Shown here one piece after another: positions 12,975 to 49,798 of a DNA stretch of 49,798 bases. Where the stretch lies: assembly GCA_028700655.1 (NCBI GenBank), contig JAQVSG010000007.1:1-49798 (forward strand), in the 5' to 3' direction. The notes beneath the pieces are model-generated. The model made no database searches and had not been told where the DNA came from. It worked only from the letters and a program-made list of their open reading frames with translations. Source of the stretch: Caldisericia bacterium. GTDB lineage: Bacteria; Caldisericota; Caldisericia; UBA6126. A program made the position numbers and the translations under genes. Every line of letters begins with the position of its first letter. The stretch's first letter is position 1.

Positions 12975-13832
12975 CTATTGCATACAAATGTATAAAAACA
13001 AAGGTTCAATGGAGTGATACGTTTTGTCAATATCAGAGCGCACTCCATGGCCAGCTTCGGGGTCAATTTTCATGGTGCATGGAATGCCTACAAGAGAACA
13101 CTTTTCTTCAAGCGCATAGGCCATTGAAACTGGCACAATGGGATCCATTGCACCATGAATAATGCAAGGGGAACACTCATTTTCATCAACATCCACGTCG
13201 TAAGTAATTAATCCCAATTCAAAATCTGCGGAGTGTGTGGGCAAAATACCCCCCCATAAAGATATAATACCTTTTAATCTTTCTTTGTTGTCCCACTCCC
13301 GATCGTCATAAGCAACATGACAGGAAGTTATGGCGCCAGCAGAAGAGCCTCCAACAAGGATTGTGTTTTCGTCAATACCATATATAGAGGCATTTTTTAT
13401 AAGCCAATCGATGGCATCACGTGAATCATCAACGGCTGCTTCAATAATGTTGTCCATTGTAAAAGGGTAGGGAAGATCCTGAGCCAACCTGTAGTTAATG
13501 GTACATGTTACATATCCTAGCTGAGCAAATTCAAGACAACGCTTCCGCATGTTTTCCTTGGATCCGCTAACAAATCCTCCTCCATGAATCCACACCAACA
13601 AAGGTCTTTTCTCGGTTGGTTCTTCAATGGGAGAAATGATGTCCATTTCTAATTGCAGGGTCGATCGATTTGATGTTTCAATACTTTTGTAAACAACATC
13701 GTAGTCCATTTTTAATTGGTCGGTCTGAAAGATTTCTTCCAAGTACCGTACCTTTTTATCTTGACTAAAAGAAGTAAATGTAGGAACAATACACAAAAGG
13801 CTAATCAGAAAGACAATGCATATTCTTTTCAT
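12975..13832 (-). CDS. Exported alpha/beta hydrolase (esterase/lipase-like)
   Basis: 'WIHGGGFVSGS' oxyanion motif, 'GGSSAGA' nucleophile elbow, C-terminal 'AGHG'; signal peptide. Confidence 0.85.
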   Translation of the reverse strand: MKRICIVFLISLLCIVPTFTSFSQDKKVRYLEEIFQTDQLKMDYDVVYKSIETSNRSTLQLEMDIISPIEEPTEKRPLLVWIHGGGFVSGSKENMRKRCLEFAQLGYVTCTINYRLAQDLPYPFTMDNIIEAAVDDSRDAIDWLIKNASIYGIDENTILVGGSSAGAITSCHVAYDDREWDNKERLKGIISLWGGILPTHSADFELGLITYDVDVDENECSPCIIHGAMDPIVPVSMAYALEEKCSLVGIPCTMKIDPEAGHGVRSDIDKTYHSIEPLFLYICMQ

Positions 13833-38708: not shown

Positions 38709-40214
38709 ATGTTAATATGCGGAGCTCAACTCTACAATCCGGTTACAATGCATTATGACAACTTCGACGTGCGCATACAAAAAAATACAATCTCGGATTT
38801 ACAACCATGGGAACAAAGTACCCCTGAAGAAAACGAAACCATTCTTCCCTTACATGGTGCCTTTCTGTATCCCGGTTTTATTGACAGTCACTGTCATTTA
38901 ATGGGAACCGGTGAAAAATATCTCAGCCCTTCTTTATTGGGTATCCGTTCAGAACAAACATTAAAACAAATTCTTCAAAACCAACTTTGCCTCCAACAAA
39001 GCATAGTATTGCGAGGCTGGGATGAGGAGAAACTAGGTTTTGTACCCAATCGACACTTCTTAGATGCCCTTCCTTTAGAATACCCCGTTGTTCTTGTCCG
39101 AAAATGCGGGCATATTGCCACCGTGAACACCGTAGCTGTTCAGCTTTTACATTTGTACACCCTTGACGGCATTGATGGAACATCAATAAAAGAAGGAGTT
39201 GTTCGCGAAACGGCCCTTGTGAAAATGAAAAAAATGTTACCCCAAAATGTTTCTCTTGAGTCCAACTATATAGTAGAAGGGGCAAAACGGTTCCTTCGAC
39301 ATGGAGTTACGTCTGTTCATAGTGAAGATTGGAATCCTTCTCGCTTAGAATGCTTCTTTCAATCAAATCCACTGCATATACCCTGTAGATTGTTCGAAAA
39401 AGTATCCATCCAAAACATAGAAGAATTGACATATTGGATTCAACACAAAAGCGAAATTCAACACAAGATTGCAAGCAGTTTCATTCATACAGATCGTATG
39501 ATTAAGATCTACATGGATGGATCTGTTTGTGGAGAAACAGCCTACCTTAGTACCCCCTACCTTAAATCCCATCAAAACGGTGTATGCTACCATTCGGTAG
39601 AAACACTACGCCAAATGATCCTCCTTGCGAATCAGAACAATCTACAAGTATGCATCCATACGATAGGAGATAAAGCACTAGAAAACGTTTTAAAAAGCTT
39701 TGCCGCCAACCCGTTTTCTTTTCTTCGTCATCGAATCATTCATGCCCAGTTTGCATCACGCAAACAAATACTTGATATCCAAGATAAACAACTGGAATTA
39801 AGCATCCAGCCATGTTTTTATAGGGCTGACCTTGAAACTGTTACAAAAATTCTCGATCCATTTTATCTACAAGATAATGGGTATCCCTTCAAGAGCTATG
39901 TCGAACATGATCTTTTGTTTTCACTGTCCACAGATTCGCCCGTCGAATCAGAAAACCCATTTCACAACATCGCGTATGCAGAAGAATTTATGTCTCGAAA
40001 AAAAGCGTTTTATGCATATACTGTTGCTGGAGCCCGTCAAGTATTCCAAGAAAAAGTACTTGGGATGATAGCGGTGGGATATACGGCAGATTTTTTTGTT
40101 TTAAACAAAGACCTTTTCAAAATGACGAAAAAAGAACTAGTTTCAACCATTCCTAATAAAGTTTTTTTAGATGGTAAAGAAATGATAGGAGATATTCATG
40201 CTAAAACAATATGA
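38709..40214 (+). CDS. YtcJ-like amidohydrolase
   Basis: 'LYPGFIDSHCHLMGTGE', 'VLRGWDEEKLG', 'IHTIGDKALENVL', 'RHRIIHAQF', 'LSTDSPVESENPFHNI'. Confidence 0.85.
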   Translation: MLICGAQLYNPVTMHYDNFDVRIQKNTISDLQPWEQSTPEENETILPLHGAFLYPGFIDSHCHLMGTGEKYLSPSLLGIRSEQTLKQILQNQLCLQQSIVLRGWDEEKLGFVPNRHFLDALPLEYPVVLVRKCGHIATVNTVAVQLLHLYTLDGIDGTSIKEGVVRETALVKMKKMLPQNVSLESNYIVEGAKRFLRHGVTSVHSEDWNPSRLECFFQSNPLHIPCRLFEKVSIQNIEELTYWIQHKSEIQHKIASSFIHTDRMIKIYMDGSVCGETAYLSTPYLKSHQNGVCYHSVETLRQMILLANQNNLQVCIHTIGDKALENVLKSFAANPFSFLRHRIIHAQFASRKQILDIQDKQLELSIQPCFYRADLETVTKILDPFYLQDNGYPFKSYVEHDLLFSLSTDSPVESENPFHNIAYAEEFMSRKKAFYAYTVAGARQVFQEKVLGMIAVGYTADFFVLNKDLFKMTKKELVSTIPNKVFLDGKEMIGDIHAKTI

Positions 40215-42069
40215 CGTTATCGTAGTAGGAGCAGGACATGCAGGATGTGAAGCTGCATTGGCCGCAGCAAGAATGGGTTGCAGTACTCTTTTGCTAACTA
40301 TCAATATTGATACTGTAGCCTGGATGCCGTGTAACCCAGCCATTGGCGGAAGTGGGAAAAGTCAAATTATTGCAGAAGTGGATGCTCTTGGTGGTGAAAT
40401 AGCGTTAAACGCAGAAAGATCTCTATCTCAAATTCGAGTACTCAATACTTCCCGTGGTTTAGCGTTGCGATCGAAAAGAGTGCAGTGTGACAAAGTGGCC
40501 TATAGCAAAAATATGAAATTTGTTTTAGAAAAAGAACCCAATTTGCATCTCTATCAAACTATTGTTAATGAGTTACTCATAGACCACGACAAATGTATTG
40601 GGGTCTTGGACATCTACAACGAAAAAATCTATGGAAAAACGGTGATATTAACAACCGGGACACATTTGGGTGGGAAAATTCACGTGGGATGGATATCCTA
40701 TGATGCGGGGAGAGGAGGCGAGTTAAAAGGAGGAGTTTTATCAGAAAACTTAAAAAAAATTGGTCTCGATGTTCGAAGGTTTAATACCGGCACTACTCCC
40801 AGAATCGATAAGAAAACAATACAATATGAACTTCTTCAGGAGCAACCAGGAGAAGAAATACCAATCTCTCTTTCTTTCATAACACCAAGAAAAGTATGGT
40901 CTCCGCAGCTATCGTCTTATTTGGGATGGACAAACGAAAAGACAATTGAAGTTACAAAAAAGTATTTACAATACTCTCCTTCTAAATCTGGTAATATGAT
41001 AAAAACAGGTCCCAAATCTTGCCCATCCATTGAAGAAAAGGTACAGTGGTTCCCTAACAATTATCGACACTCACTTTTTTTTGAACAAGAAGGTTTTCAC
41101 ACCGATGAAGTGTACATTGCTGGACTTAATATGAGCATATATCCCCATTGTCAATTAGAAATACTCCGGACCATTAAAGGATTGGAAAATGTAAGGTTGT
41201 TTCGCCCTGCCTATGCTATTGCATACGATTGGGTTCATACATCAGAAATCACAACCAGCTTAGAAACGATACGGTACAAAAACCTGTATCTTGCGGGTCA
41301 AATTAATGGCAGTACGGGCTATGATGAAGCATCTGCCCAAGGTATTGTAGCGGGTATAAATGCAGCCCTTTCTGTACAAAACAAAGAACCTATGTTACTC
41401 GAAAGAAACGACTCCTATATTGGAGTTATGCTTGACGACATGATTCATAAACCCCTGAATGAACCGTACCGAATTACTCCGTCTCATGTTGAATATAGAA
41501 TGCTAAACAGAGAAGACAACGCAGACCAAAGAATGACCCCTCTAGGGCGTAAGATAGGCCTCGTAACCGATAAACGATGGAGCATTTTCGAAGAAAAAAT
41601 GATGGCTTTAGAAAAAGGAAGACAATTCCTGGTTACCAACAAAATTGCACCCAATAAAACCATGGTTTCGTTTTTAAAAGAAAATTCGCTACCAGAAATT
41701 ACCCAGAGTTATTCTTATTTTGAATTGTTAAAGCGAACAGATTGGGATGAGAAAATGATGAGTATGCTCAGTGATACCTTTTCTTCTTTGCCCGTAGATG
41801 TCAAAGAAGAATTAATGATTGAAAGTAAATATGAAGGATATCTAGTTAGAGAAAAGAACGAACGTAAACAAATGGAAAAATATGAGAATCACGCACTTCC
41901 ATCAGATATTGACTACAGCGAATTTGAGATGTTGTCTAAAACGTGTATAGCGGCTTTAAACGAATACAAGCCGACAAAAATAAAGGATCTTCATTCATTA
42001 CCCGGCGTTAAACCTTCCGATATGATGATTCTGATTTCTTTGTTAAAAAAGAAAAAACTTATCCTCTAA
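40198..42069 (+). CDS. mnmG: tRNA uridine-5-carboxymethylaminomethyl(34) synthesis enzyme MnmG (GidA)
   Basis: '[23 protein letters not shown]', '[25 protein letters not shown]', '[12 protein letters not shown]', '[23 protein letters not shown]'. Confidence 0.96.
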   Translation: [623 protein letters not shown]

Positions 42070-42082
42070 AATACCTTTGTTC

Positions 42083-42134
42083 AGAGGGTTCTCGGTAATA
42101 TGTTTCACGTGAAACATATTACCGAGAACCCTCT
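42083..42134. repeat. Perfect 52-bp palindrome with parS at its centre; probable mnmG terminator hairpin
   Basis: AGAGGGTTCTCGGTAATATGTTTCAC|GTGAAACATATTACCGAGAACCCTCT, all 26 pairs checked; followed on + strand by TTTTAGTTTTTT. Confidence 0.95.
42101..42116. promoter_or_regulatory. parS: parS ParB-binding site
   Basis: TGTTTCACGTGAAACA, exact match to the widely conserved chromosomal parS consensus. Confidence 0.9.
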
Positions 42135-42916
42135 TTTAGTTTTTTAACATCCGTTTCTGAAAGAATGATTTCTTTCATTTTTTGGATTCCACTTTTAATC
42201 AACTTGGATACGTGATATTGTTGCAGATGTAGCAATTCTGCGATTTCTTTGTTTGTTAACTCAAACTTATATCGTAAAATAATGCTTTTTTGTTCATTTT
42301 CTGGCAGTTTCATTAAGGCTCTATCAAGGGAGTTTAATTTGATCTTTTCATCAACGAGATCTCTATTTTGTTGTATCGTATCTCCTACAAGAATTTTCTC
42401 AGAATCAACGGTGATTGGCTCATCTATGGAGACTGGAAATTTTGCATATGCAGCCACCATGGCGTCAATAATTTGTTTCTCCGAATATTTGGATAATGCA
42501 GCAACTTCTTTGGTTGTAGGAGCAACACCATATTGGTCAATATACATATCAATGACTCGCATAACGTCCTTGTATACTTCTAAATGCTTCCGAGTAATAC
42601 GGATTGTATCAATGTTATCTCTGAGAAAATGTTTGATTTCTCCGTTCACAATAATAGTAGCATAGGTCACAAAAGAAGCTTCTCGGTTTTCATCATACCG
42701 CTCGGCGGCTTTTATAAGACCAATATTCCCTACGGATTTTAACTCTTCAAGGATTGTTGGGTGATCATCTCGGTATTTCTTTGCTACATAATCTACGATC
42801 CAAAGATGATCTGTAACAAGCTTATTACGCTTATCAATATCGATTTTATCGTAACGTCCCTTTTTTCGATAGGGAATCAATTGTTTGTTTGAATAATCTT
42901 GATCTTTTTCTTCCAT
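42119..42916 (-). CDS. RNA polymerase sigma factor, group 3 (SigB/SigF/SigG-like)
   Basis: 'NKLVTDHLWIVDYVAKKY', 'GNIGLIKAAERYDENREASFVTYATIIVNGEIKHFLRDN', region 4 'LPENEQKSIILRYKFELTNKEIAELLHLQQYHVSKLIKSGIQKM'. Confidence 0.9.
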   Translation of the reverse strand: MEEKDQDYSNKQLIPYRKKGRYDKIDIDKRNKLVTDHLWIVDYVAKKYRDDHPTILEELKSVGNIGLIKAAERYDENREASFVTYATIIVNGEIKHFLRDNIDTIRITRKHLEVYKDVMRVIDMYIDQYGVAPTTKEVAALSKYSEKQIIDAMVAAYAKFPVSIDEPITVDSEKILVGDTIQQNRDLVDEKIKLNSLDRALMKLPENEQKSIILRYKFELTNKEIAELLHLQQYHVSKLIKSGIQKMKEIILSETDVKKLKEGSR

Positions 42917-49114: not shown

Positions 49115-49798
49115 ATGCTACATACAAAAAAATACCGCTGGATGTACTCTTTTGTTATCGTATTTTTGATGGCTTCAACAGGATACAAACCGGCACAAGG
49201 TTTCGAATATCCCTCACAATATATCGTGGGTACCGAAGAAAGAAGAACCCAATCTTATACTATTTCTTTTCATGAGGAAGATTTTCAATACCATTTTAAC
49301 AAGGGAATGGTGGAGCTGGATGTAAAAGATTTTTCGCCCTTATTGATTCCAGGTCAACCAACCCTTTTATACAAATCTATTACACAATCCATTTCATACA
49401 ATATAGATGTGTACATTGAAAAAATAAGCTGGAGCCCTTTGAAAATGGACAATGGGTCCTATATACCTGCTCATATTTTAAAGAGCTCACCAGATATGTA
49501 TGCAACAGATGGCACTACAAGAGAAAAACATGGCAAATTGCCGGGCCATGTAGTTGATTATATAATTACTGGAACGCCCCAGAACCCCTTGTGTACAATT
49601 TTGATATATCCGATTCAAATTCGATCTGGCTTTGTTTTTTTCGTTCAAGAGTGTACATTTTTGATCGTTCCCAATTTGGAAGATCCCATAACCCTTGGCA
49701 AAACAGGTAAGGAAGAAGAAATAATCATTTACCCAGATGCATGGACATCTTCGGTAAAAAAGTTGCAACATTTGCATCAGACATGGGGTATTGATAGT
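49115..49798 (+). CDS. Partial exported protein, probable C25 (gingipain-like) cysteine peptidase propeptide and start of catalytic domain
   Basis: Manual translation from ATG 49115, open to edge: MLHTKKYRWMYSFVIVFLMASTGYKPAQG... 'FSPLLIPGQPTLLYKSI' resembles C25 propeptides and 'EEIIIYPDAWTSSVKKLQHLHQTWGID' resembles the start of C25 catalytic domains. Not in the ORF track. Confidence 0.55.
   Translation, partial: MLHTKKYRWMYSFVIVFLMASTGYKPAQGFEYPSQYIVGTEERRTQSYTISFHEEDFQYHFNKGMVELDVKDFSPLLIPGQPTLLYKSITQSISYNIDVYIEKISWSPLKMDNGSYIPAHILKSSPDMYATDGTTREKHGKLPGHVVDYIITGTPQNPLCTILIYPIQIRSGFVFFVQECTFLIVPNLEDPITLGKTGKEEEIIIYPDAWTSSVKKLQHLHQTWGIDS

What the first reader, a model, noticed from the sequence alone, without database searches (positions are those of the whole stretch)
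42101..42116. Consensus chromosomal parS between mnmG and a sigma factor, without parAB alongside
TGTTTCACGTGAAACA matches the broadly conserved ParB-binding parS consensus exactly. mnmG is often found near oriC and parAB in bacteria, so finding parS directly 3' of mnmG implies this window is origin-proximal although no parA, parB, noc, rsmG or mnmE gene is present. The site could be an isolated ParB loading point in a rearranged origin region.
Basis: partly seen in the sequence, partly recalled or inferred. Interest (0 to 1): 0.8.

Follow-up and report, generated by a model that had tools for sequence, protein, structure and literature searches.

The report
parS centromere inside a terminator-like hairpin
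This bacterium's apparently only chromosome-segregation site (parS) is genuine and lies about 20 kb from its replication origin, and it forms the exact centre of an unusually long perfect DNA palindrome that probably also ends transcription of the neighbouring gene.

Summary
The 16-mer at 42101-42116 is real, exact and unique in the genome at up to 2 mismatches. It is a genuine chromosomal parS. The genome encodes a canonical parA-parB pair beside dnaA. These look missing only because the contig ends: the window's right end overlaps the next contig by 345 bp (99.1%), which puts parA 19 kb and dnaA about 22 kb to the right. In this order and in one other family of the same class (Caldisericia), all 9 genomes with parS carry exactly one exact copy, always at the 3' end of mnmG. 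There is no sign of an origin rearrangement.

The same-genus relative has a 62-bp version. Eight of the 18 shared outer pairs differ between the two, all compensated on both sides. Other relatives have 42, 34 and 24 bp. In 141 control parS sites from viral contigs the extension never exceeds 6 bp per arm. Best reading: parS is the apex of a hairpin that also acts as the intrinsic terminator of mnmG. Main rival: template-switch growth of the parS palindrome with no added function. The parS is a new member of a known kind; the fusion is a new variant, experimentally untested.

The parts
42101..42116 (.). parS, TGTTTCACGTGAAACA, exact consensus; the only copy found in the genome
42083..42134 (.). 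Perfect loopless 52-bp palindrome (26-nt arms) centred exactly on parS; predicted hairpin of about -41 kcal/mol on either strand (z about -12); terminator-like
42135..42146 (+). T-rich tract (9 T of 12) directly after the hairpin in the mnmG direction: intrinsic-terminator tail
40198..42069 (+). mnmG (gidA), 623 aa; its stop codon is 13 bp before the palindrome
42119..42916 (-). SigB/F/G-like sigma-70 factor, 265 aa, convergent with mnmG; its last codons (E-G-S-R-stop) lie in the right arm of the palindrome
49454..49798 (.). Right end of the window: 345-bp overlap (99.1% identity) with contig G000:C29, which carries parA-parB-dnaA 19-22 kb from parS

Best explanation
This is the bacterium's probably single ParB-loading centromere, about 20 kb from dnaA and the presumed origin. 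ParB encoded beside dnaA is expected to bind the 16-bp parS, load as a CTP clamp and recruit ParA (and SMC, if present). In this lineage the parS dyad has been built into the apex of a long hairpin. When RNA polymerase finishes mnmG it transcribes the palindrome, the RNA folds into a 24-pair hairpin followed by a U-rich tract, and transcription ends. One stretch of DNA would thus be both a centromere (as a duplex) and a terminator (as RNA), and would limit transcription running through the ParB-loading site. Shown by computation: the sequence, its uniqueness, conserved position, ParB/ParA/dnaA nearby, palindrome, compensated arm changes, T-tract. Inferred: ParB binding, termination, and any benefit of combining the two.
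For: parS: exact and unique. ParB on G000:C29 scores TIGR00180 at 160 bits against a 58 cutoff and aligns with solved ParB/Spo0J. It has R, N, G and R at the positions equivalent to Caulobacter R173, N178, G201 and R204, not the Noc residues Q/K/K/R (PMC7383237). parA and dnaA adjoin it. The position at the mnmG 3' end is conserved in 9/9 parS-bearing genomes of families f1, f2 and f6. Family f4 (5 genomes, 87-100% complete) has neither a ParB-family match nor an exact parS. Terminator: predicted hairpin of -41 kcal/mol; T-rich tail only on the mnmG-direction side in G000 (9/12), G001, G003 and G004 (8/12 each), against 2-3/12 on the other side. Other long hairpins in a 231-kb sample also sit at narrow convergent junctions (L219:510-545, L215:3122-3150, L220:692-717). 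In f6, where parS lies inside mnmG codons, neither arm extension nor T-tract is present. Arms covary: 8/18 outer pairs changed on both sides, 0 broken, between G000 and G001.
Against: All 63 extra pairs in G000, G001, G002 and G005 are Watson-Crick with no G-U and no mismatch; perfection beyond what RNA needs also fits DNA-level homogenisation. G002 and G005 lack a clear T-tract (5-6/12). G005 has parS but no ParB was found in its 85%-complete assembly. No transcript, termination or ParB-binding data exist for this group.
Confidence: 0.62

Rival explanations
1. Genuine parS whose flanks became palindromic by mutation alone. The 16-bp parS dyad seeds template switching during replication (quasipalindrome correction), which copies one arm onto the other and keeps both arms identical. 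The extension has no selected function.
For: The palindrome is loopless, exactly centred on parS, and every extra pair is Watson-Crick. Arm sequences are lineage-specific but stay perfect. Template switching is known to homogenise inverted-repeat arms (PMC7202029, PMC8604942; abstracts). Other short loopless palindromes exist in the genome, e.g. 26 bp at L211:294-319.
Against: 141 distinct parS sites in viral contigs extend at most 6 bp per arm, so parS does not generally seed such growth. The T-tract lies on the mnmG side in four genomes, which mutation alone does not predict. f6 parS sites show no extension.
Confidence: 0.27
2. The palindrome acts as DNA: it can extrude a cruciform under negative supercoiling, which removes the duplex parS and so gates ParB loading, or the arms add ParB contacts.
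For: A perfect loopless 52-62 bp palindrome is the kind of sequence able to extrude (general knowledge). Perfect palindromy persists while the arm sequence changes.
Against: Arms differ between species, so sequence-specific extra contacts are unlikely. G003 and G004 have only 24 bp and f6 only 18-20 bp, so it is not generally needed for parS function.
Confidence: 0.06
3. Ordinary terminator hairpin whose apex matches parS by chance; ParB does not use it.
For: Terminator-like anatomy.
Against: The exact 16-mer is conserved at the same locus over 43-72% MnmG identity, including in f6 where there is no long hairpin, and a parS-type ParB is present.
Confidence: 0.02
4. One reading: an isolated ParB-loading point left in a rearranged origin, far from parAB.
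For: No parAB in the window.
Against: Contig overlap and conserved synteny place parA, parB and dnaA 19-22 kb away.
Confidence: 0.03

Closest known systems
Chromosomal parS of ParABS systems
   Same: Exact 16-bp consensus, near dnaA/parAB, and a canonical ParB with parS-type specificity residues. Single-parS chromosomes are known, e.g. Xanthomonas campestris (PMC7333895).
   Different: Embedded at the centre of a 34-62 bp perfect palindrome in four relatives, at a convergent gene junction. I found no description of this in the papers searched.
Intrinsic (rho-independent) transcription terminator at a convergent gene junction
   Same: Stable hairpin just after the mnmG stop codon, followed by a T-rich tract, between convergent genes.
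   Different: Stem of 24 predicted pairs is far longer than the other terminator-like hairpins in the sample (7-13 pairs). The apex is fixed by parS. The T-tract is clear on one side only.
Quasipalindrome correction by template switching
   Same: Produces perfect homogenised inverted repeats.
   Different: Described as a mutation process; growth around a centromere dyad was not found in the papers seen.
Noc binding site (NBS)
   Same: 16-bp site bound by a ParB paralogue.
   Different: The sequence is parS, and the ParB carries R173/G201 equivalents, not the Noc residues.

Membership tests
Chromosomal parS / ParABS | Match to the parS consensus | tested here: met
   0 mismatches, unique in the genome
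Chromosomal parS / ParABS | Genome encodes a ParB with parS-type DNA-binding residues | tested here: met
   TIGR00180 over cutoff; R, N, G, R at the equivalents of R173, N178, G201, R204
Chromosomal parS / ParABS | ParA encoded beside ParB | tested here: met
   ParA-superfamily ATPase at C29:11706-12476, directly before parB; dnaA follows parB convergently
Chromosomal parS / ParABS | Near the replication origin | tested here: met
   dnaA about 22 kb away across a contig overlap; synteny conserved. The origin itself was not located.
Chromosomal parS / ParABS | Conserved in relatives | tested here: met
   9/9 parS-bearing genomes of f1, f2 and f6 have it at the mnmG 3' end
Chromosomal parS / ParABS | ParB binds and spreads from the site in cells | not testable with these tools
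   needs ChIP-seq or EMSA
Intrinsic terminator | Stable hairpin shortly after a stop codon | tested here: met
   -41.3 kcal/mol, 13 bp after the mnmG stop
Intrinsic terminator | U-rich tract directly after the stem | tested here: met
   9/12 T in the mnmG direction; only 2/12 in the sigma-gene direction, so a bidirectional reading is not supported by tails
Intrinsic terminator | Hairpin and tract conserved in relatives | tested here: inconclusive
   Hairpin plus T-tract in G001 and, with a short stem, G003/G004; T-tract unclear in G002 and G005
Intrinsic terminator | Transcription ends there | not testable with these tools
   needs 3'-end RNA data or in vitro transcription

The most novel reading that the evidence does not exclude
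The parS palindrome is a supercoiling-gated centromere. Cruciform extrusion of the long perfect palindrome would remove the duplex parS, so ParB loading would depend on local superhelicity and on transcription from the convergent genes.
Probability: 0.05. Interest if true: 0.75.

Novelty: new variant of a known kind. Interest (0 to 1): 0.4.

Why it matters
If the dual role holds, a bacterial centromere and a transcription terminator share the same bases. That would be a direct way to limit RNA polymerase traffic over a sole ParB-loading site, and a natural test of how transcription affects ParB loading. It also gives a clean case of a single parS held at one gene end (mnmG 3') across families, lying in the last codons of the gene in one family and in the intergenic space in others.

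Tried and rejected
Isolated parS in a rearranged origin: rejected by the contig overlap and synteny. Noc site: rejected by sequence and by ParB residues. Known RNA family: Rfam gave only sub-threshold hits of the kind any long hairpin gives. A shared GAGGG...CCCTC stem base among this genome's terminators: 3 hits against 1+1 in the control, not convincing. Palindromic extension as a general property of parS: not seen in 141 viral-contig sites. A conserved substitute palindrome near parB in family f5: none convincing. Assembly artefact: not tested directly, but palindromes with different arms in four separate genomes argue against it.

Full report
Observation. The 16-mer is exact at 42101-42116, single in the window at up to 3 mismatches and single in the genome at up to 2 mismatches (1,948,888 bases, 145 contigs, 88.6% complete, so a second copy in the missing part cannot be excluded). 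mnmG ends at 42069 and the convergent sigma gene ends at 42119.

parS is the exact centre of a perfect palindrome, 42083-42134, with 26-nt arms and no loop. It is the longest perfect inverted repeat in the window and in 231 kb of sampled genome. In the same sample, 6-bp dyads fall off steeply and end at arm 13, apart from this one at 26. The strand folds at -41 kcal/mol, z about -12.

Relatives. The same-genus relative G001 has a 62-bp palindrome at the same place, G002 42 bp, G005 34 bp, G003 and G004 24 bp, and family f6 18-20 bp. The G000 and G001 arms align without gaps over 52 columns: 8 of the 18 pairs outside parS differ, all 8 on both sides, none broken. Slid pairings fall to 40-51% paired cells. 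Only two rows are compared, so this shows linked change of the arms but not its cause. As a control, 141 distinct parS sites from IMG/VR contigs extend by 0-6 bp per arm, against 18, 23, 13, 9, 4 and 4 in G000, G001, G002, G005, G003 and G004.

Position. In all nine genomes with an exact parS in f1, f2 and f6 the site is at the mnmG 3' end. In f1 and f2 it begins 6-36 nt from the stop codon. In f6 it lies within the last codons, encoding ...YVSRET. The two f6 genomes without parS (G021, G025; 74% and 69% complete) also lack a detectable mnmG. Family f4 has mnmG but no ParB-family match and no exact parS. In f3, where the site is exact (G006) or has one mismatch (G014, G030), it lies within about 2 kb of parB and is not extended.

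ParABS. ParB sits on contig C29 with parA before it and dnaA after it. The window's last 345 bases match C29's first 345 at 99.1%, so parA begins about 19.0 kb, and dnaA ends about 22 kb, right of parS. G002 and G003 hold the same gene order on single contigs. ParB aligns with T. thermophilus Spo0J and other ParB structures. Its helix-turn-helix has R, N, G and R at the positions equivalent to Caulobacter R173, N178, G201 and R204 (PMC7383237). G001 has S in place of the G, and G003 also has S there, although the paper calls that G absolutely conserved.

Function of the extension. For a terminator: position just past the mnmG stop, strong hairpin, T-rich tail on the mnmG side in four of six f1/f2 genomes, absence of both where parS is inside coding sequence, and similar if shorter hairpins at other narrow convergent junctions in this genome. 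Against, or neutral: no G-U pair among 63 extra pairs, and unclear tails in G002 and G005. Template switching explains perfection and arm turnover without function (PMC7202029, PMC8604942, abstracts), but does not explain the T-tract or why control parS sites do not grow. The two are compatible: template switching may have made the palindrome and selection for termination kept it. I give 0.62 to a functional parS-terminator composite, 0.27 to mutation alone, 0.06 to a DNA-level role.

Novelty. A single, origin-proximal parS is known (PMC7333895). The papers searched gave no description of a parS forming the apex of a terminator hairpin, but the library lacks most subscription journals. I file the parS as a new member and the composite as a new variant.

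Noticed in passing
L044 (G000:C29) 13117-13216: Four DnaA-box-like 9-mers within 100 bp in the 3' part of parB, beside the convergent dnaA; possible origin overlapping parB. The cluster is not repeated in G001-G003.
   Followed up: partly
L010, L011, L012 (family f6), at 1501-1516: In family f6 parS is written inside the last codons of mnmG (YVSRET), so a centromere fixes the C-terminal sequence of a tRNA-modifying enzyme.
   Followed up: partly
L225-L235 (family f5, including G020 with a 1,558,103-bp single contig): Family f5 has ParB but no exact parS genome-wide and no close match near parB, apart from TGTTCCAYRTGGAACA in genus g14; its ParB matches TIGR00180 in two pieces and may use another site.
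   Followed up: partly
L182, L184, L189, L190, L198 (family f4): Five genomes, three of them listed as 100% complete, lack both ParB-family matches and exact parS: probable loss of ParABS.
   Followed up: no
L044 9477-11519: Arsenic-type gene cluster (ArsR-like regulator, arsenate-reductase-like, arsenite-methyltransferase-like, transporter fragment) lies between plsX and parA in G000 but not in G002 or G003; named by eye from the translations, not by profile search.
   Followed up: no
L046 and L034, ParB proteins: The ParB of G001 and G003 has S where G201 is said to be absolutely conserved in ParB, although both genomes keep an exact parS.
   Followed up: no
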